From positions 1-62,883 of the IMG/VR virus record IMGVR_UViG_3300008259_005074: a stretch of 62,883 nt of DNA, one strand, 5' to 3'. Of the stretch, positions 19,349 through 34,590 are shown one piece after another; within the stretch, counting starts at the first letter, position 1, and each line of letters begins with the position of its first letter. A model generated the notes under the pieces. The model made no database searches and had not been told where the DNA came from. It saw only the letters and a list, made by a program, of their open reading frames with translations. The DNA is from a virus. Position numbers and translations under genes: made by a program.

Positions 19349-19446
19349 TTATAGATAAACGGATCTCTTTTGCGTAACTCTTTTAGTTTTTTGCGATAGC
19401 GTATTTCAAGTTTGATCCGGTTGATCAAGTTTGTTAACCATTTCAT
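19345..19446 (-). CDS. 33-residue basic mini-protein
   Basis: A 34-codon frame on the minus strand starts at ATG 19446 with a perfect AGGAGG ribosome site five bases upstream, the best such site in the operon. Its TGA overlaps the ATG of the carbamoyltransferase. The product is helical and strongly basic, ending KELRKRDPFIYK. I associate this ending with a tiny protein found in T4-like marine phages, which should be tested by search. It overlaps the end of the upstream gene by 41 bases. Possible roles are nucleic-acid or membrane binding. It could also be a translated leader that couples the carbamoyltransferase to the operon. Confidence 0.7.
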   Translation of the reverse strand: MKWLTNLINRIKLEIRYRKKLKELRKRDPFIYK

Positions 19447-20530
19447 TTTTTCCTCCTATGATTTGTATCTGTCGAGTTTGATAATCAGGATCACTCCAGC
19501 AATAGTCATAGACACATTCGGCATCACTGGTTTTAACTCTGTAGACATCTAGATGAGTATTTAAACGGCTCCATATGGATTGATAATCATTTGTCCAAAA
19601 GGTATCAATGAGATCCACTTGACCGATTTGCGGATGCCCAATAGTTAAACTTTTGTCATTGGGATCAAATCCATTCACTGTTAGCCATTCACGGAACTCT
19701 TGTAATCTTATCTTTTGCCATTCGTAGTTGCCAGGATTGTTAGCCCACTCTATATCAAAGTCTCCTGCTGCCTCAGTCTGGCTACGCATGGTAGTTGAAA
19801 TTAACTCACCCACACGACTGTCACGTCCTTCATCCTGGAACACTTCCCAATGATGTTTGCCCACTGCTTTGTTCACACCTACAAATACTCCGCCTATGGG
19901 TCGATTGATAGTTTCTATACCAAACAGCTCGTAGTCTTTTTCGTCTAACACAAATCTTGGTGCATTAAGCCAACACATCAGTTGACTGGGCCTTTGCCAA
20001 GCGGGCGCTTCAATCTGTTTTCGATAACTGAGAGCCCAAGATTCAAATTCGTGACACAATAAATTCAATTGCCGGATATGCCAGCGTGTGGCAGCATTAG
20101 CTTTTAGATAGTATTCTTTGGGAGAGCCGCTGACACCTTGTAAATCTTCAAAATATCTATGCAACCAGTTGAACTTGTCATGTATGATATTGCGACCGGC
20201 TGCGCGACCATCTATAGGTGTATCTGTGATACAATTCGCCATATCAAAATAGTCGTCGATGTGATAACCAAGATTGGCTTGATTGATTGCCGCTATACTG
20301 AGATTGACCTGCTCTAGTATATAGGAACCGTTGCGAGCATGATCGACAAACCCAAAGAAACAATAGTTTTTTTCTAGATGATAATCTTTCCGCAATAGAT
20401 CATTGAGTGCTGACAGCCATTTATGACTGAGAGAGTTATCATAGATGTCCACATATACTGGCAGTAGATCGCCAGTATGACGATTTTGTAGATCAATCTG
20501 CAATCTATCTAATATCTTGCCACCAATCAT
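19406..20530 (-). CDS. Unknown protein in the radical-SAM operon
   Basis: The 374-residue product is read from ATG 20530, which has an AGGA ribosome site and overlaps the upstream radical-SAM gene by 26 bases. A GTG at 20581 is in frame but lacks such a site. No signal peptide, membrane segment or catalytic motif is recognised. The protein begins MIGGKILDRLQIDLQ and has a repeated aromatic and acidic character (FFGFVDHARNGSYILEQVN; LGYHIDDYFDMAN). Two clustered asparagine/histidine segments (ATRWHIRQLNLLCHEFESW; CWLNAPRFVLDEKDYELFG) suggest an alpha-helical fold. Its place between radical-SAM genes and the mini-gene makes a substrate, scaffold or partner role plausible. Confidence 0.75.
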   Translation of the reverse strand: MIGGKILDRLQIDLQNRHTGDLLPVYVDIYDNSLSHKWLSALNDLLRKDYHLEKNYCFFGFVDHARNGSYILEQVNLSIAAINQANLGYHIDDYFDMANCITDTPIDGRAAGRNIIHDKFNWLHRYFEDLQGVSGSPKEYYLKANAATRWHIRQLNLLCHEFESWALSYRKQIEAPAWQRPSQLMCWLNAPRFVLDEKDYELFGIETINRPIGGVFVGVNKAVGKHHWEVFQDEGRDSRVGELISTTMRSQTEAAGDFDIEWANNPGNYEWQKIRLQEFREWLTVNGFDPNDKSLTIGHPQIGQVDLIDTFWTNDYQSIWSRLNTHLDVYRVKTSDAECVYDYCWSDPDYQTRQIQIIGGKNEMVNKLDQPDQT

Positions 20531-21791
20531 ACATGTCCTGATTTTGTTGTAATATATGTGCCATGGTATATTGATCACCACGTATCTTTTCTAGTTCTAA
20601 AATCCTGCGCTTGCCTTTGATCAATCCTGCTTGATATTGATCAGGCCATTGTTCCGCAAACGTGGGTCTTTGCTTGAGTTGTAGTAAAACATCTCGTAGT
20701 GCGCCACGTGTGGCAGGCACTATCTCATCCACTTTGCGATGTAATATTTCTCTAGGCAATGCCAGCGGACTCATTAAAATGTCCGGAGTAAAACTAAACA
20801 CAACTTTGGCCAAGATGTCAACACCTAGTTCATCGGCTGTGCGTTGCATCGACTCAACTTCAAACAAACCTGGCAGAGTCAAAGTAAAGTCCAATCGCAT
20901 CTGTCTGCGATGTCGTGCGATTTCTAGGCCACGTTTAAAGTTTTCTAAAAATACGGGCCAGGCCAAACCGGTTCTGATGTATTCTCCGATGGGTCCTGTT
21001 CCGTCGATGCTTGCACAGATTTGGAAGTCTCGTATATTTGCCAGCAAATCACGATAAAGACTAATCCCATTATAATCCACGCGGCTAAGGTTGGTATTGT
21101 ATCTTGCATAAAGTCTTGGGCCATCACCCAGTTCAATGATTCTTTTCATATAGCGCCAATGCTGTTCATACATCAGCGGCTCTCCGCCCACCCAATAGAT
21201 TTCTTCTACACGATGTTCTTCTACTGCTTGAGCAAACTCTGCTTCTACCTGTGTGTCCTGGAACTGTATGATTTCACGTTTGACATCAGGCCGCATCCAG
21301 TTGTTTTTGGGATTTGACCAGTCTACCATGTCGTGTTTTTTCTCTTCAGTTTCCCAAGAGCTGGAAAGCATGTCTCCGCACATGCGACATTTAAAGTTGC
21401 AAAGATTACTAAATCTGTAGTCCCAGCTCACTGGTTTCAGTGTGGTTACACCGTCGGGTGTGGTGGCTGCCATGGCTTCCTCATACTTGTGACCAAACAG
21501 TCCCCAAAAGTAACTGCGATAGACATCTGTATTCAATAACTTCTCATTGCACACCGCACACTCTGGCAAGGTCTCTCCGGCCATCATGCGCCGTCTCACA
21601 GATTTCATGTGTTCACTGTTCCAATGTTCATCCAGTGTGATGGGAATATAACGTCCGCTGCCGGCGGCTGTGTCTATATACTGTTCAAAGTTCTGTGCAG
21701 GCTCACGACTGGCACAACACATCCTCCTCTCGGTCTGTGGCGAGAGATATGTGTGTGTCCACGGAGCCATGCACAGTGTTTCAGACTTCAT
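20505..21791 (-). CDS. Radical SAM protein with N-terminal SPASM/Twitch-like cysteines (A)
   Basis: The 428-residue protein has the radical-SAM cluster motif CNFKCRMC (C131, C135, C138), which binds a 4Fe-4S cluster and cleaves S-adenosylmethionine to the 5'-deoxyadenosyl radical. Downstream are the usual GGE segment (WVGGEPLMYE) and a barrel strand (FQICASIDGTG). Before the core lies a second cysteine set, C7 (CMAPW), C25/C26 (MCCAS) and C78/C81 (CAVC). This is the pattern of a SPASM/Twitch auxiliary-cluster domain, which is normally C-terminal. Such enzymes modify peptides or carbohydrates by C-C, C-S or epimerisation chemistry. The gene overlaps the next by 11 bases. Substrate unknown. Confidence 0.9.
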   Translation of the reverse strand: MKSETLCMAPWTHTYLSPQTERRMCCASREPAQNFEQYIDTAAGSGRYIPITLDEHWNSEHMKSVRRRMMAGETLPECAVCNEKLLNTDVYRSYFWGLFGHKYEEAMAATTPDGVTTLKPVSWDYRFSNLCNFKCRMCGDMLSSSWETEEKKHDMVDWSNPKNNWMRPDVKREIIQFQDTQVEAEFAQAVEEHRVEEIYWVGGEPLMYEQHWRYMKRIIELGDGPRLYARYNTNLSRVDYNGISLYRDLLANIRDFQICASIDGTGPIGEYIRTGLAWPVFLENFKRGLEIARHRRQMRLDFTLTLPGLFEVESMQRTADELGVDILAKVVFSFTPDILMSPLALPREILHRKVDEIVPATRGALRDVLLQLKQRPTFAEQWPDQYQAGLIKGKRRILELEKIRGDQYTMAHILQQNQDMYDWWQDIR

Positions 21792-22992
21792 AATCTATCA
21801 CTCGTGCTAACTCCGGCGCTATCTGTGAAAGGTTCTGACGACGCCTTAGATCTAGATCTTTTATCTTTATCTTCAAAAGATTTCCATCAGTGCTGGCACC
21901 ATTGATCATGAAATCTACCACGCGATCAAACTCAGATCGGAATGACTCGGGCACCCATTCACTTGACAATCTCTGTCGAACTGCCTGTTTAGCACGTTCG
22001 GGCAGGTTAGCAATACTGAAATAATAGGGATCATGCAACATGTTCCAGTAGACAAAATCAAACTTTTGACGATCGATCCATTGTGCCACGTCTGACAGAT
22101 ACATCACGTTGAACGCATTGATGGTGCAACACACCTGTAGAGTGATGTTTGAAATCCTAGATCTCATCTGTCGGAACAGTTCGATATTGTGATTGATTTC
22201 CGACCAGCCAGCATTGCTACGTTGATATTCAAATCTCTCACCTACGTCATCCACAGAAAAAGCGATTTCAACATGCCGGAAATGGCACCAGATGTCTTCG
22301 GCTTCTTCGGGATATTGTGTGCCGTTGGTGTTGTAGTGTATTTCAATTTGATGAGCATATCCACGGTCTACCAGGCGGCGCAGTAGATCAAAATGCTCTC
22401 GGATCATGAAAGGTTCGCCACCAGTGAACTCAATGTATCGGACTTGGGCCATGGCCGAATCCAGTTCGTGCCAAAACTGCTCGCTGTTGCGCGGCCATGC
22501 TCCATCACGTAACATTTGATAATGGAAACTTTTCTTTTTATCTTCTCTATCAACAATAAAGTTCAACTCTTCTGAAGCAAAAGTCGACGAAGACCATGAA
22601 CCACAGATGCGGCATTTGAGATTACAGATATTACCTAATTTGAGATCCAAAAACATCAAAGGTTTAGCATCTGCTGTCCAATTGTCAGAAATGCCCATAT
22701 GTTTGAGCCTATCTAGAGTATGCATCCTTTTACTGGTACGACCGGCACGTTCTTCTTGCCAACATCTACGACAGGTCTGTGGTTGCTGGCCATCTAAAAA
22801 CTGCTGACGCAGATTTTTTAGATGTTGGCTGTTCTGTATCTGGTCAAAGGTAGAGTTTGTAAGTTGGAATTTTTTCCCTTGATCATCTACTATCTCGTCC
22901 ATGGCCAAACAGCAAGGTCTCACTGTGCCTATGGGACTGGTTTCTAAGCTAACCCACGGTAACACACAGAATTTCTCGTGTGGTATTTTCAT
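21781..22992 (-). CDS. Radical SAM protein with N-terminal SPASM/Twitch-like cysteines (B)
   Basis: The 403-residue protein has CNLKCRIC (C123, C127, C130) preceded by C9 (CVLPW), C27/C28 (RPCCLA) and C74/C77 (CRRC), the same layout as protein A and the 22989 protein. After the core come FTGGEPFMIRE (the GGE motif) and IEIHYNTNGTQ. The motif spacing and the CxxPW and PCC signatures define one subfamily with its two neighbours. It may install a modification on a peptide or glycan. It overlaps the preceding gene by four bases (ATGA) and the following gene by 11. Confidence 0.9.
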   Translation of the reverse strand: MKIPHEKFCVLPWVSLETSPIGTVRPCCLAMDEIVDDQGKKFQLTNSTFDQIQNSQHLKNLRQQFLDGQQPQTCRRCWQEERAGRTSKRMHTLDRLKHMGISDNWTADAKPLMFLDLKLGNICNLKCRICGSWSSSTFASEELNFIVDREDKKKSFHYQMLRDGAWPRNSEQFWHELDSAMAQVRYIEFTGGEPFMIREHFDLLRRLVDRGYAHQIEIHYNTNGTQYPEEAEDIWCHFRHVEIAFSVDDVGERFEYQRSNAGWSEINHNIELFRQMRSRISNITLQVCCTINAFNVMYLSDVAQWIDRQKFDFVYWNMLHDPYYFSIANLPERAKQAVRQRLSSEWVPESFRSEFDRVVDFMINGASTDGNLLKIKIKDLDLRRRQNLSQIAPELARVIDYEV

Positions 22993-24257
22993 TGCAAGGC
23001 CTCCAGTTCGGGTATCACAGACAGCAGATTCTGTCCGCGGATGGCGTCTAGTTCGTGAGTCTTGCGCCAGAATACCTCCAGTAATTGAGTGTTATCTGAC
23101 CCCATCATAAAATTGATAGCCGATTCAAAACCCACCGTGGCACGTTGCAAAGGATCTTGTGTTCTCAACCAATCAAGGTGCTCTTCAAAGCGTATCCTTA
23201 GACGTTGTTTGTATTTCATAGGTGCTATGTCTATTCTATAGTGTGCTGGATCTTGCAAGATATTGACATTGAGATCCTGCGCACGTATCAGTCCTTGCTC
23301 TACCCAAGATTTATGAAAATCAGGTAGATGCCATGCGTTCATGATACTCAGCGTAGGAGAAATATAGAAATCTACGTTGGGGCAGATATCTATCATCCTA
23401 CGACGATTATCTTCTACTGTGTTCCAATTGGTACCATTGCGTATGTATTCAGCACGCAAGTCCATGGCATCCAGGCTGGCTCCTACTGCTACACTCTTAA
23501 ACTTTTTCCAATAGTCAAACACATATCGATCTTTGAGTTTGACTTGCGTGAAGTTTGTATTGTAGATCAGGCGCACATCAAATCGTTCTCTGCGTTCTAA
23601 TTCTTCCAGGATGCGATAGTGCTCATCCATCATCAGAGGCTCGCCACCTGCAAAATATATCTGCTCTACATAATCAATATGCGGTAACAATTGGTTCCAC
23701 ATATCTTCGGGATCGCGACCTGCAATGTTCAAAGGTCTATTGTGTTTGGCCCATTCAGGACCGGCTAACTTGATCTGATCTTGATACCATGAACTGGAAA
23801 AGATATGCCCACAACTGCGACAACTGAGATTGCAAAGATTACTGAAACGTATATCCCAATAAGTCATCTCAAACGGATTGCTTTCTAATTTCTTGATGTG
23901 ATGACCGTGATGTTTGTTGGCTGATCTCCGACCTGAAAAAAATCCCGATTCCTCTTGTTCATAGCATCGACCACAGGCCGGGTTGGGCCGTTCGGCTAAC
24001 ATGTCTTCTCGCAACTGTGTCATGGACGGACCTTGCCAAATTTCGGCCAAGGTATTCTTTCTGCAATCGCCCACTGGGTATCGCATCTCTGCATGACAGC
24101 AAGGATAGGCTTCACCTGTGGGATAAGCATGCAGGTGTATCCAAGGATAGATACAGAATGTTTTGCTGTCTTTCAGCAGAAATTGTTCGCGATCGTTGAG
24201 ATCCGTTGGTCGGACTAAATCTGCGGAATTATATTGATATTGTGTCATACCACTCAC
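22989..24257 (-). CDS. Radical SAM protein with N-terminal SPASM/Twitch-like cysteines (C)
   Basis: The 422-residue protein has CNLSCRSC (C142, C146, C149) and the N-terminal cysteines C35 (CIYPW), C53/C54 (YPCCHAE) and C95/C98 (CGRC). IYFAGGEPLMMDE gives the GGE motif. The stretch CCHAEMRYPVGDCRKNTLAEIW is close to the SPASM consensus, including the conserved pattern of a residue turn then L.EIW, so the auxiliary-cluster interpretation is strongest in this copy. A 30-residue N-terminal extension precedes the first cysteine. It overlaps the upstream gene by 29 bases. Confidence 0.9.
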   Translation of the reverse strand: MSGMTQYQYNSADLVRPTDLNDREQFLLKDSKTFCIYPWIHLHAYPTGEAYPCCHAEMRYPVGDCRKNTLAEIWQGPSMTQLREDMLAERPNPACGRCYEQEESGFFSGRRSANKHHGHHIKKLESNPFEMTYWDIRFSNLCNLSCRSCGHIFSSSWYQDQIKLAGPEWAKHNRPLNIAGRDPEDMWNQLLPHIDYVEQIYFAGGEPLMMDEHYRILEELERRERFDVRLIYNTNFTQVKLKDRYVFDYWKKFKSVAVGASLDAMDLRAEYIRNGTNWNTVEDNRRRMIDICPNVDFYISPTLSIMNAWHLPDFHKSWVEQGLIRAQDLNVNILQDPAHYRIDIAPMKYKQRLRIRFEEHLDWLRTQDPLQRATVGFESAINFMMGSDNTQLLEVFWRKTHELDAIRGQNLLSVIPELEALQ

Positions 24258-25587
24258 TCAATGCAGGAAAAGTCCTGCGGAAATTTTTGCCACGGCGCCG
24301 ATCATATTGCTCGTAAAATTGTTTAAAATCGTTGTGCAATCGCGGCATATCAAATGCATCTGAATGCGGAGTCTTGACCACGTCAAGATAATCTATCAAT
24401 CGTTGCATGTGATTGCGTTCGTGTTCATGCATCATGACATTGTCAGTCCAGCGATCTAACCAGGCCTGCAATCGATCTCTATGACGCATACGGATGTGAT
24501 CAGGCAAAACCAGTGGTGATTGGAAACTGGGAAATCTCAGGATGTTCAGCGTGAAGTTAGGAAAGTCCGAACCATGGTCCTGTTTCCATAACATGAGATA
24601 GGTCAGGAACTCTGGCAGGCTTTCCAGGCACAAGGCATTAATGGTACACATCACATGCAAGCCTCGCAGTTTTTTACTCTGCATGATGCGTTCCATGTTG
24701 TCGGTCCACTGTCCATAGTTCAAACCATCGCGGATATATTCAGCATGAGGACCGATGCTCTCATTGGAAGTATACAGATCCAGTTCTACATCTTCGCAGG
24801 CATTGATAGCACGTTCTATCACATCATATTCCATGCCAAGATTTGAGTTGATGGCCAGGCGTGTTTGCGAACGTCCGCGATTTTGTTGGAACCAATCCAA
24901 CAACTTCCAGGTATATCCGCTCATCAGTGGTTCACCACCGGTGATGCGCAGTTCTTTCAGTGTTCTATGTAGGTCTGATTCCCACCACTGGAAAAATGCG
25001 TCCACATAAGGATTCCGATCATTGAATGTATACAACTGACTGCTGTCATGAGCGTGAGTGAAATGATTACGACCATCTGATACCAGGCCGGTGTAAGCAC
25101 CGTGTTGTTTAATATCCCGAACCCATGTAGAACTAAAAGCAGGATTGCAATAAGAACAAGCGAACTGGCAAGTCCTATCAAAGGCGATTTCCAAGGTTTG
25201 TAAATCCACGTCTTGGTCCGCTGGAGTATGGTATGCATCATCAAGGTCCTCGTCTGAATATATCACTGTCTTATACACACGGTCGCTGACGTTGTCTCGA
25301 CCTATGTCTTCAATCTTCCAGCAGTATTCGCACCCTTGTGGGCGCTCGCCGCGTTGCATCATGCCTCGTTCGGATTTTTTTTTGGCAGTATTGTGCAAGG
25401 CTTTGGGATTGGCTTCTGCATCTTCTACGCTGACTTTGTGAGGCAGCGGGTGATGGCAACTGGTAGTCATGCCGGAGCCTAGCCAAATAGTAGCGTTATA
25501 CCATTTGGCTCCACAAAAACTATCGGATTTGATATCGATCACCCGACGTTTGTATTCAATATCTGTTTCGTTGTCTTTACGTGGCAT
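24229..25587 (-). CDS. Radical SAM protein, second subfamily (D)
   Basis: The 452-residue protein has CQFACSYC (C140, C144, C147) and the GGE segment RITGGEPLMSGYTWKLLDWF. Its upstream cysteines, C25, C44 (SCHHP) and C86/C89 (CEYCWKIEDIG), differ from the CxxPW type. It pairs with the protein at 30951, sharing the HP after the second cysteine, CxYCWxxED, the FST-W-(V/M) segment after the core and the QWW segment. The C-terminal end (RRRGKNFRRTFPALSEWYD) also matches that protein (RRRGTRFLKVFPEMVEWW). It overlaps both neighbours (29 and 11 bases). Likely a SAM-dependent modifying enzyme with one substrate shared with the other D-type protein. Confidence 0.9.
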   Translation of the reverse strand: MPRKDNETDIEYKRRVIDIKSDSFCGAKWYNATIWLGSGMTTSCHHPLPHKVSVEDAEANPKALHNTAKKKSERGMMQRGERPQGCEYCWKIEDIGRDNVSDRVYKTVIYSDEDLDDAYHTPADQDVDLQTLEIAFDRTCQFACSYCNPAFSSTWVRDIKQHGAYTGLVSDGRNHFTHAHDSSQLYTFNDRNPYVDAFFQWWESDLHRTLKELRITGGEPLMSGYTWKLLDWFQQNRGRSQTRLAINSNLGMEYDVIERAINACEDVELDLYTSNESIGPHAEYIRDGLNYGQWTDNMERIMQSKKLRGLHVMCTINALCLESLPEFLTYLMLWKQDHGSDFPNFTLNILRFPSFQSPLVLPDHIRMRHRDRLQAWLDRWTDNVMMHEHERNHMQRLIDYLDVVKTPHSDAFDMPRLHNDFKQFYEQYDRRRGKNFRRTFPALSEWYDTISI

Positions 25588-26596
25588 GCATGAACTTTTG
25601 GAATTTTACAGTAAATGTTTTCTGTTGGTTAGTATGTAGTTCTTGGGCGTGCTGTTGGTTATATAAACAGATGTCTCGTGTTTCGATCCAAAATTGGTCT
25701 AGATCTTGATCGCATAACCACTGGACTTCTTGTATCAATCTGTCCAGTCTCCCCTTACCATCTATTATAGTATCAAACGATTCATCGATCAACGATCCGA
25801 ATGTTCTAAATCCCATGCGATGTAGGTCTCGATAGAATCCCATGTTGGCACAAATAACAAAAGGATGTGCCGCTAATATTGGCTTGTAGGTTTTCTCTGT
25901 GCGGAAACTGTGCGGATATTCAAACACAGTTTCACTGACTACGCTGAAGTAAGTGTCATTGAACTGTGGTGCATAGATCACGCCATCTAACCATGATGGT
26001 TCTGGTTGAATTTCATACCGTGATGGCAAAGATTTTTCGGATAAATCCATATGCTCAACATAGACTCTGTTGAAATCTCTATGCCCCCATGTATCATAGT
26101 TCTCTAGACAAGACCACAATGCTCGATCCAACAATCCAAAAAATTTCAATTTGGCGATCAAGTATTTCCTATGCGGACGCAGTTTTCGATTGGTAAAAAG
26201 AAATTTATAAGGTCGAGTAACCTGTTGGCTTAATACCAGGTTGGTTTCTTGGCTGCCGATAGTGGCCCGTAAAAAATGCTCGTTGTTGAGATTTTGTATA
26301 TCCGGATCAGAATCACCGCCTGTTATCCATCTAAGAGATCCTCTTTGGAACCATGTATAGTAGAGATGATGTTTGACTATGTGCCACTGAGTGGCCACTG
26401 ATTCATCTGTTTTTTCTACAGCGATAGTGCTGCCATTTTCCAAACTCTTGATCACCAACTCTGGTCGCATAACCAGAGTCTTCAAGGATATAGCATAACA
26501 CCCTTGTCGATCACTTAGATAGTCAACAACGATGTCATCTGCTGTATCGAGATACCCAAGTGGCAGTCCAGGCTCAACAATAATATTACCATTCAT
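25577..26596 (-). CDS. TEK-motif glycosyltransferase-like protein (family member 4)
   Basis: The 339-residue protein contains the family core: FSVVSETVFEYPHSF (about 215-229), RTEKTYKPI (about 230-238), HPFVICANMGFYRDLHRMGFRTFGSLIDESFDTI. The N-terminal portion includes a W-rich segment and PHRKYLIAKLKFFGLLDRAL, the same helical region as in member 2. The two features suggest a two-lobed GT-B-like fold with the EK motif in the donor site. It lies between a radical-SAM gene and a cupin gene, overlapping both by 4-11 bases. Donor could be the GDP-sugar from the neighbouring genes, but this is inference. Confidence 0.68.
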   Translation of the reverse strand: MNGNIIVEPGLPLGYLDTADDIVVDYLSDRQGCYAISLKTLVMRPELVIKSLENGSTIAVEKTDESVATQWHIVKHHLYYTWFQRGSLRWITGGDSDPDIQNLNNEHFLRATIGSQETNLVLSQQVTRPYKFLFTNRKLRPHRKYLIAKLKFFGLLDRALWSCLENYDTWGHRDFNRVYVEHMDLSEKSLPSRYEIQPEPSWLDGVIYAPQFNDTYFSVVSETVFEYPHSFRTEKTYKPILAAHPFVICANMGFYRDLHRMGFRTFGSLIDESFDTIIDGKGRLDRLIQEVQWLCDQDLDQFWIETRDICLYNQQHAQELHTNQQKTFTVKFQKFMHAT

Positions 26597-26952
26597 GCCT
26601 GATTATCGCCTGGAACGATTCTATAATTGTCTTCCACAGAATCTGGTGTGCTGACTTCTATGATTGTTCCTGCTTCAATACAGATCAACTGATGAGGCTG
26701 GCAAGGTGGATTGTGCCAAGTTGCCCCTTCATTTAATTCTTTTTCATGAGATTCAGCGGTATCAGTATCTATCCAACGAATTAGAAATTTGCCATTTTGG
26801 ACATACCAAGTTTCATCTTTGTCTCGATGGAAATGCATACTGAAGCGGGCACCGGTCTCAAAATTTAAAAACTTTGCACAATATTGGTTATTAGTTGCCC
26901 AAATAAATTCAGATCCCCATTTTTTAGGAACCAGTCCTGTCAATCTGGTCAT
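26593..26952 (-). CDS. Cupin-fold sugar-phosphate isomerase-like protein
   Basis: The 119-residue single-domain cupin has the metal-binding set H40, H42, E47 (MHFHRDKDETWYV) and a distal H87 (QPHQLI). The KKWGSE start and GxxxxMHFHxxxxE pattern are those of the mannose-6-phosphate isomerase-like cupins that are often fused to ManC-type guanylyltransferases. The reaction may be isomerisation of a hexose phosphate or 3/5-epimerisation. The metal ligands are intact, but neither reaction can be assigned from sequence alone. It lies within the GDP-sugar gene group, with a four-base overlap to each neighbour. Confidence 0.85.
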   Translation of the reverse strand: MTRLTGLVPKKWGSEFIWATNNQYCAKFLNFETGARFSMHFHRDKDETWYVQNGKFLIRWIDTDTAESHEKELNEGATWHNPPCQPHQLICIEAGTIIEVSTPDSVEDNYRIVPGDNQA

Positions 26953-28004
26953 GATTCAAATACATGATGCATTTTGTGATATTGTTCACGACTAAACTCA
27001 ATGAACCTTTCACGGTTATAGCGAAGATCGGGCAACATATCTTGATAGATGTCTTCGATCTCTGACAGAGTCATATCGCATAACCAATGTAATACACTCA
27101 TCACACTACCATGCTGGTCCTCTGAGGTTTCTATATCAACATGTGGCCAATAATGGTTAAATGTTTTAAATCCTCGATTACGCAACCATGGATATATCCT
27201 AGTCTGCCCATGTATGACAAAAGGTCTTAATCCAATCATTGGTTTCCATGTTTTCTCAGTTACAAACAAGGGATGCCAATTGTTAAACTCTGTTTCGCTG
27301 ACCACATGTAAAAAATGATTTTTCCACACAGTTAGAGGACCTAGTCCAAACAAATCGCAAGGAATTCCACCACAGTCATCCTCTGTAATAAAATCATCTA
27401 AGTTCTCACCCAATGTTATGTTAGGGCCCATCATACCATCAGCATAGATATCTGCATGTTCTTTTGATCCGCCACCTAAAGTAATGATTCCCCTACGATC
27501 AAGACGAGATGCCAATATAAGATTAGTGAGCTCCACACGGTGTAGTCTTGGTTTGCGTTGTAGACAAACGAATACGTGTTTAACTGATTGAAGGCTGATT
27601 TGATCCAAAGTGGGTATGGTCATTAACTTATAGGCGGCTGCCGCGTGCCAATTCCATTGATACTTTTGATTTTCCCATGTGCCGATGCGTATTACTTTCT
27701 CGCACTTGATTTGATTGATAATACTATCTATTAGATCTTCGCGCAGATACACAGGATCGATTGTAGATAACAAAAACAAATTGTCAAATTTAGCGCAATC
27801 TTTGTAGATCAATTTTTCTAACTTTTGCCATTGTCCGTTATCAAACTGAGGACCAAACCAAGTCATATTCAATAATAAATTCTTTTCATCTTTGAACTTA
27901 GACTCAATTTGTTCTGCAGTCTTTTGCAATACTTCTCGTTCCAAAGGCCCATAGTGATAAGCAAGTGGGAACGTGGTTCCAATAACAGTTATCATGATAG
28001 ACAA
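26949..28004 (-). CDS. TEK-motif glycosyltransferase-like protein (family member 5)
   Basis: The 351-residue protein has HVVSETEFNNWHPL (about 232), FVTEKTWKPMIGLRPFVIHGQTRI (about 247), LRNRGFKTFNHYW. Its middle part has HVFVCLQRKPRLHRVELTNLILASRL, the helical region seen in members 2 and 4. The start MSIMITVIGTT may instead be ATG 27995, three codons in. The neighbouring genes are a cupin and a GDP-fucose-synthase-like enzyme, which fits a fucosyltransferase-type donor, though this is inference. It overlaps the upstream gene by 13 bases. Confidence 0.68.
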   Translation of the reverse strand: MSIMITVIGTTFPLAYHYGPLEREVLQKTAEQIESKFKDEKNLLLNMTWFGPQFDNGQWQKLEKLIYKDCAKFDNLFLLSTIDPVYLREDLIDSIINQIKCEKVIRIGTWENQKYQWNWHAAAAYKLMTIPTLDQISLQSVKHVFVCLQRKPRLHRVELTNLILASRLDRRGIITLGGGSKEHADIYADGMMGPNITLGENLDDFITEDDCGGIPCDLFGLGPLTVWKNHFLHVVSETEFNNWHPLFVTEKTWKPMIGLRPFVIHGQTRIYPWLRNRGFKTFNHYWPHVDIETSEDQHGSVMSVLHWLCDMTLSEIEDIYQDMLPDLRYNRERFIEFSREQYHKMHHVFES

Positions 28005-28927
28005 TTTTGTTTATACCATTGGATTGTGATATCTATACCCTGTGATAAATTATATTTTGGTTGCCACCCCATGGATTTTATTTTACTGTTGTCTAAAGTT
28101 CTAACAATAGTAGCTGTTGGTTTTGTGATATCCCATTGTATATCCCCTGCAAAACCAGATAAGTGCTTTACTAGATCGGCGGCAGTCTTAAGGTTAACTG
28201 GATTACCGGCAGAAAGATTTATTGGCTCACTGGCAGAATAATTTTGCATACAAAAAATACAAGCGTCGGCAGCGTCGTCCACAAACATAAAATCTCTTAC
28301 CTGACTTCCATCTCCCCAAAGAGATACTGCGGCGTCTTGACGTTTGACAGCATTGACAAATTTGCTTATAAAATCACTCATGACATGAGATTTGACATTA
28401 TCAAAAGTATCGTTAGGCCCGTAAAGGTTACCGGGCATCACTGTGATAAAATCACATCCCCATTGTTTTCTAAAATACTGAGCCATTTTGATCCCAGCAA
28501 TTTTTGCCACGGCGTAGGCTTCGCTAATTGGTTCTAAATATCCAGATAAAAGTTGATCTTCAGTGATAGGTATTTGACAGTCTTTGGGATAGGCAGAACT
28601 ACTACCAGTAAACAAAAGTTTTTTACACTGATATTTGCGAGACACATCAAAAACATTGTTTTGTATTTCTAAGTTATACAGCATTGTTTCTCCCCAATCC
28701 TGACTCAAAAGTCCTATCAACTTAGCCGCTACTAAAAATACATACTCTGGCCTATGCCGATTGAACCAAGCATCGACCTGTGTTTTATTTCTCAGATCTA
28801 ATTCTTCGGGACTAGGATATAGTATGTTAGTATATCCTTGTGATCGTAATTGTCTCACTATAGCCGATCCAAGGTGTCCACGAAATCCACCTGCTACAAA
28901 TATTTTAGACTGTTTTTCCATGTTCAT
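27992..28927 (-). CDS. GDP-L-fucose synthase-like epimerase-reductase (WcaG/DmhB type)
   Basis: The 311-residue SDR has a glycine motif GGFRGHLG (13-20), S110 in FTGSSSAYPKD, and YxxxK at Y138/K142 in EAYAVAKIAGIK. The segment PITEDQLLSGYLEPISEAYAVAKIAG followed by MPGNLYGPNDTFD is characteristic of GDP-fucose synthase, which converts GDP-4-keto-6-deoxymannose to GDP-L-fucose. Related reductases (DmhB) make GDP-6-deoxyheptose. The neighbours, a 4,6-dehydratase-like gene and an HddA-like kinase, fit both pathways. The start could be M3. It overlaps the GHMP kinase gene by four bases (ATGA). Confidence 0.88.
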   Translation of the reverse strand: MNMEKQSKIFVAGGFRGHLGSAIVRQLRSQGYTNILYPSPEELDLRNKTQVDAWFNRHRPEYVFLVAAKLIGLLSQDWGETMLYNLEIQNNVFDVSRKYQCKKLLFTGSSSAYPKDCQIPITEDQLLSGYLEPISEAYAVAKIAGIKMAQYFRKQWGCDFITVMPGNLYGPNDTFDNVKSHVMSDFISKFVNAVKRQDAAVSLWGDGSQVRDFMFVDDAADACIFCMQNYSASEPINLSAGNPVNLKTAADLVKHLSGFAGDIQWDITKPTATIVRTLDNSKIKSMGWQPKYNLSQGIDITIQWYKQNCLS

Positions 28928-29919
28928 CTGTCCTGATTGTCGTAATAAATTATCTGACTACCTAGATATTCAAATAAAATTGGCACACTGGTCAATCCTA
29001 GTGCCTCTTCAACTTTTTGTTTGGCATCCAGCGGTGTGACAAAAAGCATAAATCCACCACCGCCTGCCCCCAACAACTTACCTCCCAGAGCTCCTGCTGT
29101 TAGAGCACGATCATATATTTCATCAATTTTCTGATTGGTCGATTCGGGCTGTATTGCCTTTTTTAGAATCCATTGTTCGTTTAGAGCCTCGGCAAAGTCT
29201 GTCAGTCTGTTTTGATTTGCATCAAACAATATACTCTGCGCTCGATCAGTTAAAGCATTCATATCCTGCAATTTTTTTTCTTGTTGCCCAAGTAAAGCAA
29301 TAGTTTTTTTCGCTAACTGACCGCTCTCTCTGCAATCTTGTGTATGAAACATCTGCATTGATGATTCCAATTCTCGGTGTATGCCAGAATCAAGTATCAA
29401 GGGATTGACCGTAAAATCTTGATGTCCACCAAAATTGATTTTATTGAAACCACCAAATGCGGCGGCCACCTGATCTTGGCTACCCACATCTTGTTTCAAA
29501 ACTTTCTGCTCGATATACAAGGCATCTAATGCTAACTGACGTTTAGTCTTGAGTTGATTAGTCAAGGTATAGAGACCGTGTAGAAGACCTACTGTGAAAC
29601 TACTGCTAGAACCTATGCCTGTGCGATTAGGCAAATCTCCGTGATGTGTAATATCGATACCAAAATCAATATTACAAAACTTCAAACATTCTCTGATCAC
29701 AGGAATAGATATTTCATCTATGGAATTGGTTTCTTGTACCTCATAATATCTTATGCGATATTTGTAATCAAACACTTGAGGCAATTTCCTAATAACAATA
29801 AAACTATATTTGTTAATAGTGGTGCTGATTACTGATCCCGGATGATACTCATACCAATCTGGATAGTCGGTCATGCCTCCGAAAAAACTTACTCTATAAG
29901 GAGTTCTAACTATGATCAT
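28924..29919 (-). CDS. GHMP-family sugar kinase (HddA-like)
   Basis: The 331-residue GHMP kinase has the ATP-binding motif PNRTGIGSSSS (97-107), an N-terminal RTPYRVSFFGGMTD, and a C-terminal GGKLLGAGGGGFMLFV loop. The N-terminal pattern RxPxRxSFxGGxTDxP is that of D-glycero-D-manno-heptose-7-phosphate kinase and L-fucose or arabinose kinases. Such kinases make a sugar 1-phosphate for nucleotide activation. Together with the following 4,6-dehydratase and reductase it would make a GDP-sugar, although no guanylyltransferase is seen in the window. Overlaps of four bases to both neighbours imply coupled translation. Confidence 0.9.
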   Translation of the reverse strand: MIIVRTPYRVSFFGGMTDYPDWYEYHPGSVISTTINKYSFIVIRKLPQVFDYKYRIRYYEVQETNSIDEISIPVIRECLKFCNIDFGIDITHHGDLPNRTGIGSSSSFTVGLLHGLYTLTNQLKTKRQLALDALYIEQKVLKQDVGSQDQVAAAFGGFNKINFGGHQDFTVNPLILDSGIHRELESSMQMFHTQDCRESGQLAKKTIALLGQQEKKLQDMNALTDRAQSILFDANQNRLTDFAEALNEQWILKKAIQPESTNQKIDEIYDRALTAGALGGKLLGAGGGGFMLFVTPLDAKQKVEEALGLTSVPILFEYLGSQIIYYDNQDR

Positions 29920-30929
29920 CTTATCAAATAATTTTTATTGATCTCGTTAACCTTCTCTCGCCAATGGTCTAGTAGATCTTGCATGGTCCGATCAAAGGTA
30001 ATTTCCGGTTTCCATCCAGTATGCTTACGAAATTTTTCTGTGTTTGGTATCTGGAGATCTGCATCTATTGGACGCAATCGGTCAAGGTCGACTTCTACCC
30101 GTATGCTGTCCTGACAGGCACTTAATGATATTAACTTATCAAGGATATCCTGCACTCGGCATACATGCGTGCCTCCTATGTTGTAATATTCTCCAGGGAC
30201 AGGATTTACGGTAACAAGCATAAGATAAGCTCGCACAGCATCTCTGACATCAGCAACAGTCCGTAAACTATCAAGATTGCCCACCTTGACAACAGGTTCT
30301 ATTTTACCTTTTTCAATCATAGCGATCTGTTTGGCAAAAGATGATTCAGCAAACACATCTCCGCGACGCGGACCGGTATGTGTGAACATTCTAGTGGTCA
30401 TGACTTTTAATCCGTATGCTTCGGCATAAAATCTTCCCAACAAGTCTGTACCAACCTTGCTAATAGCATATGGCGAGGCTGGATGAAAAGTGCAATTTTC
30501 ATCTATAGGAAGTTTTTCTTTAGGAACTCGACCAAATACTTCTGAACTAGCACAAACATGTATTATTGCGTCAGGACAGTGAATTTTACATGCTTCTAAC
30601 AATCTTGCTGTGCCTTGGATGTTAGTGTTAAGAGTTTCTACAGGACTATCAAAACTAGTCTTTGGAAAACTTTGTGCCGCAAGGTGGAAAACATAATCGG
30701 GCTTTGAATTTTTTATGATTTTTTGCAATGACGGATCATCATTTAAATCACCATACTCGAGCATGATGCGTTTTTTTTGATTTATATCGGGGATCAAATG
30801 ATTGATGTTGTCAAGAGGACTCCGCCATCTTATTACACCAACAATATTCCAGTCAGTTTCTTTAAGGATCAGATCGGCTAGATGGCTTCCGACCATGCCT
30901 GTGATTCCGGTGATAAGTGCAGTAGTCAT
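29916..30929 (-). CDS. GDP-mannose 4,6-dehydratase-like SDR
   Basis: The 337-residue SDR has GITGMVG (8-14), the ASSEVFG segment (128-133) and YxxxK at Y154/K158 (PYAISK). The MFTHTGPRRGDVFAESSFAKQ and LDSLRTVADVRDAVRAYL segments are those of GDP-mannose 4,6-dehydratase and GDP-6-deoxy-hexose reductases (RMD). The enzyme would produce a GDP-4-keto-6-deoxy sugar for the reductase downstream. Dehydratases normally have a T(D/E)VYG motif in place of the ASSEVFG seen here, so the reaction could also be the RMD-type reduction. It is the first gene after a 21-base gap in the operon. Confidence 0.86.
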   Translation of the reverse strand: MTTALITGITGMVGSHLADLILKETDWNIVGVIRWRSPLDNINHLIPDINQKKRIMLEYGDLNDDPSLQKIIKNSKPDYVFHLAAQSFPKTSFDSPVETLNTNIQGTARLLEACKIHCPDAIIHVCASSEVFGRVPKEKLPIDENCTFHPASPYAISKVGTDLLGRFYAEAYGLKVMTTRMFTHTGPRRGDVFAESSFAKQIAMIEKGKIEPVVKVGNLDSLRTVADVRDAVRAYLMLVTVNPVPGEYYNIGGTHVCRVQDILDKLISLSACQDSIRVEVDLDRLRPIDADLQIPNTEKFRKHTGWKPEITFDRTMQDLLDHWREKVNEINKNYLIR

Positions 30930-30950
30930 TTTGCTTGGTTAATATATAAT

Positions 30951-32399
30951 TTATTGTTTGATTAATTGCTTGGCTAGATATCCACAATCGGCCCACCATT
31001 CGACCATTTCTGGGAATACTTTGAGAAATCTCGTGCCGCGGCGTCGGTCATGTTCATCGAAAAATCGGAACCAATCCGCACGCTGACGGCGCACATAATC
31101 AGGATCTAGTTTCTTTCCTTCTCGCATCCACGCGATGTCTCTATCCAATCTCTGTAGTTCGTAATCTTTAAAGCCTTTGAATCGTCGTTCTTCGGTTTCG
31201 AGATTTTTCATCATGAAAACCCAAACTTCTTCCAGTTTGTCTGCGTAACTTTCGGGCAAGATCTGCAGGCTCTGCCAGGCTGGATTTCTCAACACAGGAG
31301 TATCGAACCAAACACGCTGATAAGTGTTAGAATAGATCTGTCTTAATCCCAACATCCCTACCATGAGTTCCTGGAAACTAGTCACTGACAAGTTGTTCAT
31401 GGTTATGATAAATGTGATGGAACTGCGATGTGGTATTTCAGTGAGGAATTGATTCACACGATCCCATAACAGGGCAAAATCCATACCATGCCGTATATAC
31501 TCGGCACGGTCCATCCAAGCATCAAGGCTCACATACTGCATGAAATGCTCCACACGCTCGTTGTCGCAGATCATTTTCACATAACCTTTGTAGCGTTGCC
31601 AAAGACGTTCGTCGGCACAGAAGTTTGATGTTACATTAAGATGCAGTCGCGGATTGTGATGAGCCATCACATAGTCAAACACTTTATAAGTGTTCTTGTC
31701 CATCATAGGCTCGCCGCCGGTCATACGGAAATGTTCTAGTTCCGGATACAGCGCAGGCCACCACTGCCAAAATGCTTCAAGATAGGGATTGTGTTCACGA
31801 AAAGGTATGGGTTTGCGATCTCCTTGGAAGTAAGCAGGATCGTTATGAGGTGTAGCAGTGGGCCAGGCGCCGTGACGTTCTGCTTCTTCCATCCAGGACG
31901 TAGAAAATTGTGGACTGCAATAACTACATTTGAGATTGCAAACAGAATTGAAATTGACTTCCACATAACTAGGAGTGACATCTTGGTCCCATGGCGCGGT
32001 CACTATCTTTTCAAAATCACGAGCCGCCCAGGGTTCTCCGGATCTGTAATGACGATCCGACATTTCTCCGAGATCTTCCATGTTCCAACAATACTGACAT
32101 TCGCCCGGGCGTGTGCCTTCTAACATCAATCGGCGTTGCTGTTTTTTGTGTTCAGTATTGTGGATACCCGATGGACTGCGTTGTATGTCCTCGATGCGTA
32201 TTTTGTGCAACGGAGGATGATAGCAGGAATTGGTATGGCCAGTGGTGAGATGTAAACTGACTTGTTTCCACTTGGCCAAACAAAGACTAGAACTTACAGT
32301 ATCGAGTTTTTGTTTGATTATTTCTGCATCACTTAAGAATTTTGACTTGAAGTCTTGTAATACTTCATCGCCTTTGTTTTGTTCAGACAATATTGACAA
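30951..32399 (-). CDS. Radical SAM protein, second subfamily (E)
   Basis: The 482-residue protein has CNLKCSYC (C154, C158, C161), GGEPMMDKNTYKVFDYV, and upstream cysteines C40, C59 (SCYHPP) and C101/C104 (CQYCWNMEDLG). It matches the 24229 protein over its length (see that entry) and is longer by about 30 residues. The two D-type proteins flank the GDP-sugar block, so they may arise from a gene duplication and later insertion. Auxiliary-cluster cysteines again precede the core. It overlaps the following gene by 17 bases. Confidence 0.9.
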   Translation of the reverse strand: MSILSEQNKGDEVLQDFKSKFLSDAEIIKQKLDTVSSSLCLAKWKQVSLHLTTGHTNSCYHPPLHKIRIEDIQRSPSGIHNTEHKKQQRRLMLEGTRPGECQYCWNMEDLGEMSDRHYRSGEPWAARDFEKIVTAPWDQDVTPSYVEVNFNSVCNLKCSYCSPQFSTSWMEEAERHGAWPTATPHNDPAYFQGDRKPIPFREHNPYLEAFWQWWPALYPELEHFRMTGGEPMMDKNTYKVFDYVMAHHNPRLHLNVTSNFCADERLWQRYKGYVKMICDNERVEHFMQYVSLDAWMDRAEYIRHGMDFALLWDRVNQFLTEIPHRSSITFIITMNNLSVTSFQELMVGMLGLRQIYSNTYQRVWFDTPVLRNPAWQSLQILPESYADKLEEVWVFMMKNLETEERRFKGFKDYELQRLDRDIAWMREGKKLDPDYVRRQRADWFRFFDEHDRRRGTRFLKVFPEMVEWWADCGYLAKQLIKQ

Positions 32400-33327
32400 T
32401 CTCCGTTGAATACTTTTGATCTAGCAGAAGATTGTAGTTATGATCTAGAATAGATTGCATATCCTGATACATGTGATACAATTCTGACTTAGATTTTTTG
32501 ACCAAGTCATCAATGAGTTTTAGTGTTGATTGCAATCTATCTTTGGTATCAAACCCATCATAGTCTTCGTTCCAAAAATTCCAAAATGTCTTAAACCCCA
32601 TCTGCCGTAGATACTCTAGATAATTCCGGCTGGCAAAAACAATAAATGGTTTTTTCATCCACATCGGTCTAAAAGTCTTTTCGGTAGCATAAAAAGTTTC
32701 CCCTGACACATGTGATTCAACTACCACATCAACTAGAATATTTTTATAGTAATTTGTCAGCGGATCTGAAAAATCATAACCTTCACTGTCAGTGTATCTA
32801 TCTGGACTAGACAACAACAAAGGAAGATCATCAATCAACACACTGGCGTCTTTGACACTTTCAATGCGATAAGATAATAGTTTGTCAAATTCAAAATGCA
32901 CCAAATCATCCACACCGGTATTAGCCGAGAAATGTATCAGGCTTTTACGGCCGTGATAGCGTCTTAAATGTCCTGCAATAGCCAGTCGAGCCGCTGTGGG
33001 TCTCCCAAACAATGCATAGAAGACATGCGTTTGATCCCAAGAATGCATGCTGTTATCTATGGATTCAATTTTTTTTGGCCAGTGATTTTCTAAAAATTTT
33101 ATATGATAATAAGGATGTGATTCCAATGGATTGGCCGTGATAACAGTAACATTTTTATGTTCCATGGATTCTAATAATCGATAAACTCCCAAAGTTTTCA
33201 TGCTCACAGCTTCGGGGGCCACAGTAATCTCAATCGGAAGACCTTGATTAGCAAACAAAAATCTAACAAATTCATCTTTGTTCCAAAACTTATCACTGGT
33301 TGCAAGGATCTGGAAAGATACTGTCAT
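32383..33327 (-). CDS. TEK-motif glycosyltransferase-like protein (family member 6)
   Basis: The product is 314 residues from ATG 33327. A GTG two codons upstream lacks support, while GAGGGG lies at good distance to the ATG. The family core is VVVESHVSGETFYATEKTFRPMWMKKPFIVFASRNYLEYLRQMGFKTFWNFWNEDYDGFD, closest to member 2 in the FWNEDYD ending. The N-terminal half is short and shows no additional domain. The ATG overlaps the stop of the preceding gene (TAATG). It is the last TEK-family gene upstream of the radical-SAM block in the operon. Confidence 0.68.
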   Translation of the reverse strand: MTVSFQILATSDKFWNKDEFVRFLFANQGLPIEITVAPEAVSMKTLGVYRLLESMEHKNVTVITANPLESHPYYHIKFLENHWPKKIESIDNSMHSWDQTHVFYALFGRPTAARLAIAGHLRRYHGRKSLIHFSANTGVDDLVHFEFDKLLSYRIESVKDASVLIDDLPLLLSSPDRYTDSEGYDFSDPLTNYYKNILVDVVVESHVSGETFYATEKTFRPMWMKKPFIVFASRNYLEYLRQMGFKTFWNFWNEDYDGFDTKDRLQSTLKLIDDLVKKSKSELYHMYQDMQSILDHNYNLLLDQKYSTEIVNIV

Positions 33328-34256: not shown

Positions 34257-34590
34257 TGGTCACGGTTACTTTCCAAAATTTCTTTTGAGTATAGGTGGTT
34301 GGCACAACGATACAAACATCGTCGGCATGGCAAGCATATTCGCCATGATCTGCTGGTGCCAATCGCCAACTGCTCTGTTGTGTTATTTTAATCAATTTTC
34401 CATCGCGCACTTTGAGATCCATGCGCACTTGTTCAAAGGTATGACGATCCACTACAATGTATGTGCCAGGAAGATCTTCCATGGAATAGCAAGTGATGGT
34501 TCCGGAATCATCATAGTAGATGCGGAATTCGGCTCGATTTTCGGGCACGGTCCAATCATGCTGTGTGGCGGCTTGCCAAAAGGCATCCAT
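34243..34590 (-). CDS. Small phage protein, unknown
   Basis: The 115-residue product (MDAFWQAATQHDWTVPENRAEFRIYYDDSG...) is beta-rich and ends in a TYTQKKFWKVTVTN strand pattern. The central stretch GTYIVVDRHTFEQVRMDLKVRDGKLI and CHADDVCIVV suggest a compact domain that I associate with an uncharacterised T4-like phage protein family. There is no signal peptide or membrane segment. It overlaps both neighbouring GT genes (14 and 35 bases), so it is co-translated with them and may be an accessory factor. Confidence 0.72.
   Translation of the reverse strand: MDAFWQAATQHDWTVPENRAEFRIYYDDSGTITCYSMEDLPGTYIVVDRHTFEQVRMDLKVRDGKLIKITQQSSWRLAPADHGEYACHADDVCIVVPTTYTQKKFWKVTVTNEES

What the first reader, a model, noticed from the sequence alone, without database searches (positions are those of the whole stretch)
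20505..32399. Five radical-SAM enzymes with auxiliary-cluster cysteines ahead of the core
Each protein has Cx3Cx2C preceded by a cysteine set that looks like a SPASM/Twitch domain (C-x17ish-C(C)-x45ish-CxxC). In well-studied SPASM enzymes this domain follows the radical-SAM core, so the order here is unusual. Two subfamilies exist (CxxPW/CC, three genes; HP/CxYCW, two genes). Such enzymes modify peptides or sugars, and five in one operon suggest sequential modification of a product.
Basis: partly seen in the sequence, partly recalled or inferred. Interest (0 to 1): 0.85.

Follow-up and report, generated by a model that had tools for sequence, protein, structure and literature searches.

The report
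Phage cassette of five radical-SAM enzymes
A group of uncultured giant phages carries, in a fixed order, five radical-SAM-type enzymes whose second iron-sulfur domain sits before the catalytic core, next to sugar-modifying-type genes, which suggests that the phage makes an unusual chemical decoration that nobody has yet identified.

Summary
Five genes encode radical-SAM proteins with a Twitch-type cysteine set before the core. This order already has a name: all five match NCBIfam NF033640 (N_Twi_rSAM) over its cut-off. The cysteines are intact in 289 of 289 aligned family members; models of C and D are confident.

New here: the five form a cassette, E-D-C-B-A, complete in 71 of 80 related viral contigs, with no order violation. 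The 11 contigs of 200 kb or more each have 10-15 matches to the family model, 6-12 over cut-off; 8 carry IscU and 10 an A-type Fe-S carrier.

Usual neighbours are a carbamoyltransferase, an amidinotransferase and unclassified, perhaps glycosyltransferase-like families. Best reading: the enzymes successively oxidise or epimerise sugars of a phage-made glycan, perhaps on the virion. That chemistry is inferred; no substrate was found.

Phages rich in radical-SAM genes are in print; my searches found no report of this cassette.

The parts
20505..21791 (-). rSAM A (428 aa), N-terminal twitch, CxxPW/CC type
   Evidence: NF033640 284 bits; SPASM N-term below cut-off; Cys 55/55
21781..22992 (-). rSAM B (403 aa), N-terminal twitch, CxxPW/CC type
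   Evidence: NF033640 343 bits; SPASM over cut-off; Cys 58/58
22989..24257 (-). rSAM C (422 aa), N-terminal twitch, CxxPW/CC type
   Evidence: NF033640 391 bits; SPASM 35-99 E 2.7e-12; AF2 pLDDT 92.9, pTM 0.89; Cys 57/57
24229..25587 (-). rSAM D (452 aa), N-terminal twitch, HP/CxYCW type
   Evidence: NF033640 297 bits; AF2 pLDDT 94.9, pTM 0.92; Cys 60/60
30951..32399 (-). rSAM E (482 aa), N-terminal twitch, HP/CxYCW type
   Evidence: NF033640 306 bits; Cys 59/59
17861..19348 (-). Nol/NodU-type O-carbamoyltransferase
   Evidence: Carbam_trans_N and _C, phrog_1601 E 1e-96; in 55 of 59 units, i.e. 58 distinct contigs plus window
19345..19446 (-). 33-aa micropeptide ending RDPFIYK, upstream of the carbamoyltransferase
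   Evidence: 54 of 58 distinct contigs plus window; invariant residues vary in codon; mostly upstream of a carbamoyltransferase in other viruses
19406..20581 (-). conserved protein of unknown family, next to A
   Evidence: 54 of 59 units; no useful Pfam or PDB match
16809..17864 (+). amidinotransferase of the AGAT/StrB/SxtG family, opposite strand
   Evidence: profile vs PDB E 1e-18 to 1e-12; GRD, HxDA and C-terminal Cys regions align; 38 of 59 units
25577..26596 (-). 'TEKTF' family protein, usual gene between E and D (glycosyltransferase-like by motif, inference)
   Evidence: 46 of 59 units; no Pfam family
32383..33333 (-). 'TEKTF' family protein
   Evidence: 16 of 59 units
26949..28004 (-). 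'TEKTF' family protein inside the insert between D and E
   Evidence: alignment A4; not among families shared by 6 or more units
14582..15640 (+). 'TEKTF' family protein
   Evidence: 24 of 59 units
15571..16824 (+). 'TEKTF' family protein
   Evidence: 30 of 59 units
33327..34256 (-). very conserved protein, faintly GT2-like
   Evidence: 56 of 59 units; PF13641 in 3 of 16 members, best E 0.03
34556..35395 (-). conserved protein with a DxD-like stretch (GT-A-like by motif, inference)
   Evidence: 50 of 59 units; no Pfam family
35379..36257 (-). conserved protein with an LDTDY stretch (GT-A-like by motif, inference)
   Evidence: 46 of 59 units; no Pfam family of note
26593..30929 (-). insert between D and E: cupin, TEKTF protein, Fcl-like, GHMP kinase (HddA-like), Gmd-like dehydratase; a GDP-deoxysugar-type set
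   Evidence: not among families shared by 6 or more units
36580..37557 (-). tail-type protein (named from its sequence), 31% Ser+Thr, possible acceptor (inference)
   Evidence: 40 of 59 units

Best explanation
A fixed biosynthetic module of a lineage of large tailed phages. SHOWN by sequence: five ancient paralogues of the N-terminal-twitch radical-SAM family, each with ligand-type cysteines for a catalytic cluster (CxxxCxxC) and for one auxiliary cluster (four cysteines, or five with CC), in the order E-D-C-B-A, with an O-carbamoyltransferase, an amidinotransferase and several uncharacterised families as usual neighbours; most of the largest contigs also encode IscU and an A-type Fe-S carrier. 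INFERRED: each enzyme cleaves SAM to the 5'-deoxyadenosyl radical and abstracts a hydrogen from a sugar or cyclitol carbon, and the auxiliary cluster takes up (or returns) the second electron as proposed for BtrN, giving ketone formation or epimerisation at different positions. Glycosyltransferase-like enzymes assemble the units, and amidino and carbamoyl groups finish them, much as in aminoglycoside tailoring. The phage IscU/IscA pair helps to load the many clusters while the host supplies most of the sulfur mobilisation. The product most likely decorates virion proteins: the block runs on from tail-type genes on the same strand, and none of its proteins has a strong membrane-segment signal. 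Odds: twitch radical-SAM architecture 0.97; sugar or glycan tailoring 0.5; virion as the target 0.35.
For: Family and architecture. AF2 models match radical-SAM cores: BlsE Z 13.1 (rmsd 3.3, 216 aligned, model C) and Z 14.0 (rmsd 3.4, 219 aligned, model D), with DesII, anSME, SuiB, SkfB. Full-length matches to predicted proteins of uncultured phages (top twelve rows). The profile's N-terminal part 13-86 aligns best with the C-terminal region 184-259 of BtrN (4m7t, whole-sequence E 3.3e-4, no single stretch significant). Cassette: 71 of 80 complete, no order violation; 58 distinct contigs after collapsing near-copies. Sugar-type neighbours: carbamoyltransferase, amidinotransferase. In Vibrio phage K566, N_Twi-type genes (two of six matches over cut-off) lie beside two GT8 genes. 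Fe-S supply: IscU in 8 of 11 and A-type carrier in 10 of 11 contigs, against 17 and 9 of 50,697 phage records by protein search; 9 of 11 other IscU-bearing contigs of 40 kb or more have an N_Twi match. None of 26 proteins between 9.7 and 36.5 kb reaches a 19-residue hydropathy mean of 1.6.
Against: No substrate, product or acceptor was identified. The GT-like families have no Pfam or PDB assignment; calling them glycosyltransferases rests on motifs recalled from general knowledge. Core-fold neighbours include peptide or protein modifiers (SuiB, SkfB, anSME), so the fold does not decide. Of three further N_Twi copies of contig G001 whose surroundings I could read, two stand among genes that I would name helicase and ClpP-like, one beside a TEKTF, a TylF and a cytidylyltransferase gene. 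Two Elusimicrobia loci hold such genes without sugar genes that I recognised, in one of them among many other radical-SAM genes. NF033640 also rings below its cut-off in 14 of 14 control genomes, so matches under the cut-off may be other radical-SAM proteins. The Fe-S comparisons have no matched control: collections differ in sampling, several of the 11 contigs are close relatives, some contigs may be pieces of the same phages, and the contig with a full-length class-V aminotransferase (G011) has neither IscU nor carrier.
Confidence: 0.45

Rival explanations
1. Peptide (RiPP-like) maturases: the five enzymes cross-link, oxidise or epimerise residues of a small peptide or of a phage structural protein.
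For: Many SPASM/Twitch enzymes of known function modify peptides or proteins (recalled); the core fold matches SuiB, SkfB and anSME. A 33-aa peptide with a near-invariant C-terminal half lies just downstream of A and the 19406-type gene in 54 of 58 distinct contigs; the other four break off before it.
Against: PqqD-type recognition domain in 0 of 11 contigs, control positive in 3 of 14. The peptide's wider family goes with the carbamoyltransferase (67 of 80) and shows no radical-SAM gene in 59 of 80 stored stretches, 34 of the 46 of 8 kb or more. Sugar-type neighbours.
Confidence: 0.25
2. Modification of the host surface: the module alters LPS or capsule to exclude other phages or change the host phenotype.
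For: The window's insert encodes a GDP-deoxysugar-type set; phages are known to carry O-antigen-modifying GTs (recalled).
Against: No protein of the block has a strong membrane-segment signal, so no flippase or polymerase is evident; the cassette is far more widely shared than the insert.
Confidence: 0.15
3. Hypermodification of phage DNA bases.
For: Carbamoyltransferases and GTs occur in phage DNA hypermodification (recalled); a ThyX-type gene lies in the window (8872-9543, named from its sequence).
Against: No Thymidylat_synt match in 11 contigs, control positive in 9 of 14. No Tet_JBP match either, but its control was silent, so that says nothing. The contigs may be incomplete.
Confidence: 0.08
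4. Unrelated single-step enzymes that only share a locus, for example in cofactor or nucleotide metabolism.
For: Further N_Twi copies stand elsewhere in the contig, two of three read ones without sugar-type genes; the five paralogues share only 20-32% identity.
Against: The fixed order and joint retention in 71 of 80 contigs.
Confidence: 0.07

Closest known systems
NCBIfam NF033640 N_Twi_rSAM
   Same: All five match over 97% or more of the model, over cut-off; the name itself describes the twitch domain
   Different: The entry's description as shown gives no function; nothing in it speaks of a five-gene phage cassette
BtrN (twitch dehydrogenase of butirosin biosynthesis)
   Same: One four-Cys auxiliary cluster; weak profile match of the domain. 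Review PMC9012708 (passages seen): four-Cys Aux cluster, two-electron oxidation of an aminocyclitol
   Different: In BtrN the twitch follows the core; here the cysteine set precedes it
Marine T4-like environmental genome TARA_ERS488813_N000010 (PMC5332604, one section read)
   Same: 12 radical-SAM genes plus an A-type carrier in one phage genome
   Different: 183 kb, marine; that section speaks of no cassette, twitch order or sugar neighbours
Aeromonas giant phage 332-Vera (PMC12390700, passages seen)
   Same: Eight radical-SAM genes inside the structural gene cluster of a giant phage; the authors call such a number highly unusual
   Different: Placed in Chimallinviridae; its record was not held, so relation to N_Twi is untested
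Vibrio phage K566 (OZ196521)
   Same: Six matches to NF033640, two over cut-off, five of them within 18 kb, beside GT8 genes
   Different: About 23% identity to C; the cassette's order was not seen there

Membership tests
N_Twi_rSAM (NF033640) | full-length match above the curated cut-off of 170 bits | tested here: met
   284-391 bits, five of five
N_Twi_rSAM (NF033640) | twitch-type cysteine set before the core | tested here: met
   289 of 289 aligned members, spacings nearly uniform
Radical SAM superfamily | CxxxCxxC and radical-SAM core fold | tested here: met
   CxxxCxxC invariant; models of C and D match radical-SAM cores at Z 13-14; Pfam Radical_SAM over cut-off only in A and B, below it in C, D, E
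Radical SAM superfamily | binds a SAM-coordinated [4Fe-4S] cluster and cleaves SAM | not testable with these tools
   needs purified protein
SPASM enzymes (two auxiliary clusters) | seven-cysteine C-terminal SPASM domain (number recalled) | tested here: not met
   four or five conserved cysteines, N-terminal
Twitch enzymes of the BtrN type | one four-Cys auxiliary cluster after the core | tested here: not met
   four-Cys set present but before the core; the domain resembles BtrN's weakly
RiPP maturation systems | adjacent precursor peptide used by the enzyme | tested here: inconclusive
   33-aa peptide conserved but linked to the carbamoyltransferase
RiPP maturation systems | PqqD-type recognition element | tested here: inconclusive
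   0 of 11 contigs, control 3 of 14; divergent elements can escape one model and the contigs may be incomplete
Arg:X amidinotransferases (gene 16809-17864) | homology to AGAT/StrB including its active-site regions | tested here: met
   E 1e-18 to 1e-12 against PDB chains; which residues are catalytic is recalled
Phage DNA hypermodification | Thymidylat_synt-type hydroxymethylase | tested here: not met
   0 of 11 contigs, control 9 of 14
Phage DNA hypermodification | TET/JBP dioxygenase | tested here: inconclusive
   0 of 11, control silent

The most novel reading that the evidence does not exclude
A virus-encoded, multi-step radical-SAM pathway: five permuted-twitch enzymes, served by the phage's own Fe-S scaffold and carrier, build an amidinated and carbamoylated sugar or cyclitol decoration (an aminoglycoside-like glycan) of the phage particle; and the RDPFIYK micropeptide is a partner or substrate of a widespread viral carbamoyltransferase.
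Probability: 0.22. Interest if true: 0.87.

Novelty: new variant of a known kind. Interest (0 to 1): 0.62.

Why it matters
Radical-SAM enzymes are oxygen-sensitive and costly (general knowledge), so a phage lineage that keeps five of them in fixed order, has 6-12 members of the family over cut-off in each of its largest contigs and mostly brings Fe-S assembly genes must gain something important. The set gives biochemists five defined enzymes with a permuted auxiliary domain, a direct test of whether the place of the auxiliary cluster in the chain matters, and a route to an unknown phage-made product.

Tried and rejected
Precursor-peptide reading: the 33-aa gene looked like a PqqA/MftA-style precursor (comparison recalled); the wider survey showed that it goes with the carbamoyltransferase, so I dropped it as the radical-SAM substrate. 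No such peptide was seen beside the carbamoyltransferase in five phage records, and none in a protein search of the phage records (low-complexity filter on).

The GDP-deoxysugar genes between D and E looked like part of the pathway; they are not among the families shared by six or more units, so I treat them as local cargo.

Family, PDB and phage-record searches for the TEKTF proteins, 33327, 34556, 35379 and 19406 gave nothing useful. No phage record matched D; C matched 3 of 50,697.

A separate fold search of the N-terminal domain was not possible (both prediction jobs went to whole proteins); whole-model searches align the core, and BtrN was not in the listed fold matches, which says nothing about the twitch domain.

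Literature (open-licence PMC papers only): the phrase 'N-terminal twitch' with radical SAM in 0 papers, the four papers with 'twitch domain-containing radical SAM' not all opened (one seen in passages), and no paper on this cassette. Most subscription journals are not covered. Moraphages (PMC12619734, abstract and passages): radical SAM not mentioned. The habitat and host of the window's phage were not established by any search.

Counting notes: of nine incomplete loci, four (L068, L070, L081, L083) lack C only in my ORF picking, since C was the search anchor; L010, L021, L055, L086 and L043 are short stretches. The finder kept the best 80 of 173 relatives. Loci L001-L006 were left out; three short members were left out of the alignments. 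One search missed the peptide of L046, which has one substitution in the motif. The output was cut, so the surroundings of the G001 copies in L092, L093 and most of L094 were not seen; of five stretches fetched I read two.


Full report
What is there. The window is a virus record of 62,883 bases. Five minus-strand ORFs at the stated place encode radical-SAM proteins of 428, 403, 422, 452 and 482 residues, here called A, B, C, D and E from low to high coordinate. NCBIfam places all five in NF033640, 'twitch domain-containing radical SAM protein' (N_Twi_rSAM), over at least 97% of the model and far over cut-off.

Strength of the cysteine pattern. I fetched the best 80 of 173 relatives of C from the viral contigs, called ORFs and sorted the radical-SAM proteins by nearest window paralogue. 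In alignments of 55, 58, 57, 60 and 59 members each cysteine of the auxiliary set and of CxxxCxxC is present in every member, 289 of 289, with nearly constant spacing; three short A members were dropped before. The pattern did not arise in 100,000 shuffles. D and E have a single cysteine where A, B and C have CC, so one four-Cys set is the common denominator; which cysteine of CC is the ligand is not settled.

Structure. AlphaFold models of C (pLDDT 92.9, pTM 0.89) and D (94.9, 0.92) are confident through most of the N-terminal region, apart from the first ten residues of C. Their cores match known radical-SAM enzymes: BlsE Z 13.1 (rmsd 3.3, 216 aligned) and 14.0 (rmsd 3.4, 219 aligned), with anSME, SuiB, DesII, SkfB and MoaA within about two units. 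Such rows do not discriminate function, and they cover the core. The profile's N-terminal part aligns best with BtrN's C-terminal region (whole-sequence E 3.3e-4, no single stretch significant). In the viral model library the top twelve matches, at query TM-scores of 0.66-0.92, are proteins of uncultured tailed phages.

A fixed cassette. In 71 of 80 loci the complete set E-D-C-B-A lies on one strand; no locus breaks the order. Collapsing near-copies leaves 58 distinct loci, 55 of them complete. The five paralogues share 20-32% identity. In a quick tree each forms its own clade (support 99-100), and D and E fall together with extra phage copies (99); A, B and C are not shown to be one clade, and two Elusimicrobia proteins join C (93). 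Fifteen of the 58 carry further radical-SAM copies nearby. The 11 contigs of 200 kb or more among the 80 have 10-15 matches to NF033640 each, 6-12 of them over cut-off; 14 of 14 control genomes ring too, none over cut-off.

Neighbours. Among 59 units (58 distinct loci plus window), families found beside the five are: 33327 in 56, carbamoyltransferase 55, 19406 in 54, 34556 in 50, 35379 in 46, the TEKTF protein 25577 in 46, amidinotransferase 38, and others (loci cut by contig ends lower these numbers). The GDP-sugar-type genes between D and E in the window are not among families found in six or more units. The amidinotransferase is related to AGAT, inosamine-phosphate amidinotransferase, HsvA and SxtG. 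The TEKTF profile has 6-10 matches in each of the 11 contigs. None of the 26 proteins between 9.7 and 36.5 kb has a strong membrane-segment signal; the tail-type protein 36580-37557 has 31% Ser+Thr against 9-15% in those 26.

Fe-S supply. IscU is encoded in 8 of 11 and an A-type carrier in 10 of 11 of these contigs, side by side in the two that I read. A match to the class-V aminotransferase family, to which the cysteine desulfurase belongs, was found in 4 of 11, full-length only in G011, which has neither IscU nor carrier; so sulfur probably comes from the host. In the phage collection IscU matches 17 and the A-type carrier 9 of 50,697 records. Of the IscU-bearing contigs found, 9 of 11 of 40 kb or more and 1 of 5 of 30-40 kb have an N_Twi match; there was no matched control, and some may be pieces of the same phages. 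Nishimura and colleagues (PMC5332604, one section read) already suggested that viral Fe-S assembly genes serve viral Fe-S proteins.

The 33-residue gene. The ORF 19345-19446 is found in 53 of 58 distinct loci by a motif search and, with one substitution, in a 54th (L046); the remaining four break off inside A or earlier. In the 53 it is 33 codons long with ATG, and all 16 positions invariant in them apart from Met and Trp vary in codon: a real protein under selection. A pattern scan found relatives in at least 120 viral stretches; of the 80 read, 67 have the carbamoyltransferase frame starting within -200 to 1500 nt downstream, one further off, and 12 have none on that strand, seven of these with less than 1 kb of sequence left. 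Only 21 of 80 show a radical-SAM gene in the stored stretch. It therefore looks like a partner of the carbamoyltransferase.

Mechanism. Shown: architecture, conservation, order, neighbours. Inferred: that each enzyme makes a deoxyadenosyl radical; that the auxiliary cluster acts as proposed for BtrN, whose four-Cys cluster and two-electron oxidation of an aminocyclitol are reviewed in PMC9012708 (passages seen); that the substrate is a sugar; that the virion carries the product. The combination of twitch enzyme, amidinotransferase and carbamoyltransferase recalls aminoglycoside tailoring (BtrN; StrB and TobZ recalled), which is why I prefer sugars. Independent support is the K566 neighbourhood, where N_Twi-type genes stand beside two GT8 genes over cut-off. 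Against: no acceptor, no assigned glycosyltransferase in the module, and N_Twi copies elsewhere without sugar-type neighbours.

Verdict. I rate it a new variant of a known kind.

Noticed in passing
window 19345-19446 and loci L180-L259: A micropeptide family ending RDPFIYK sits upstream of a Nol-type carbamoyltransferase in many uncultured viruses (67 of 80 read), mostly without a radical-SAM gene in the stored stretch.
   Followed up: partly
L095 6202-6907 (contig G001 about 56.7-57.4 kb): Phage-encoded IscU and IscA-type carrier genes side by side, followed further on by a gene that reads like a ribonucleotide reductase.
   Followed up: partly
window 740-1879: A Gram-negative porin gene (PF13609, E 6e-38) inside a phage contig, followed by a weak TctC-like fragment at 2198-2689 (E 0.019): host-derived cargo or a chimeric stretch.
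   Followed up: no
window 26593-30929: Insert between D and E with Gmd-like, GHMP-kinase (HddA-like), Fcl-like and cupin genes, not among families found in six or more units.
   Followed up: partly
window 9789, 14582, 15571, 25577, 26949, 32383: Six members of an unnamed protein family with a TEKTF-like motif; 6-10 profile matches per large contig and no Pfam family.
   Followed up: partly
L088 1882-17183: An Elusimicrobia MAG stretch packed with different radical-SAM genes, two of them strong matches to my N_Twi profile.
   Followed up: no
window 39817-54324: A single 4835-residue ORF, tail-type by reading, upstream of the module.
   Followed up: no
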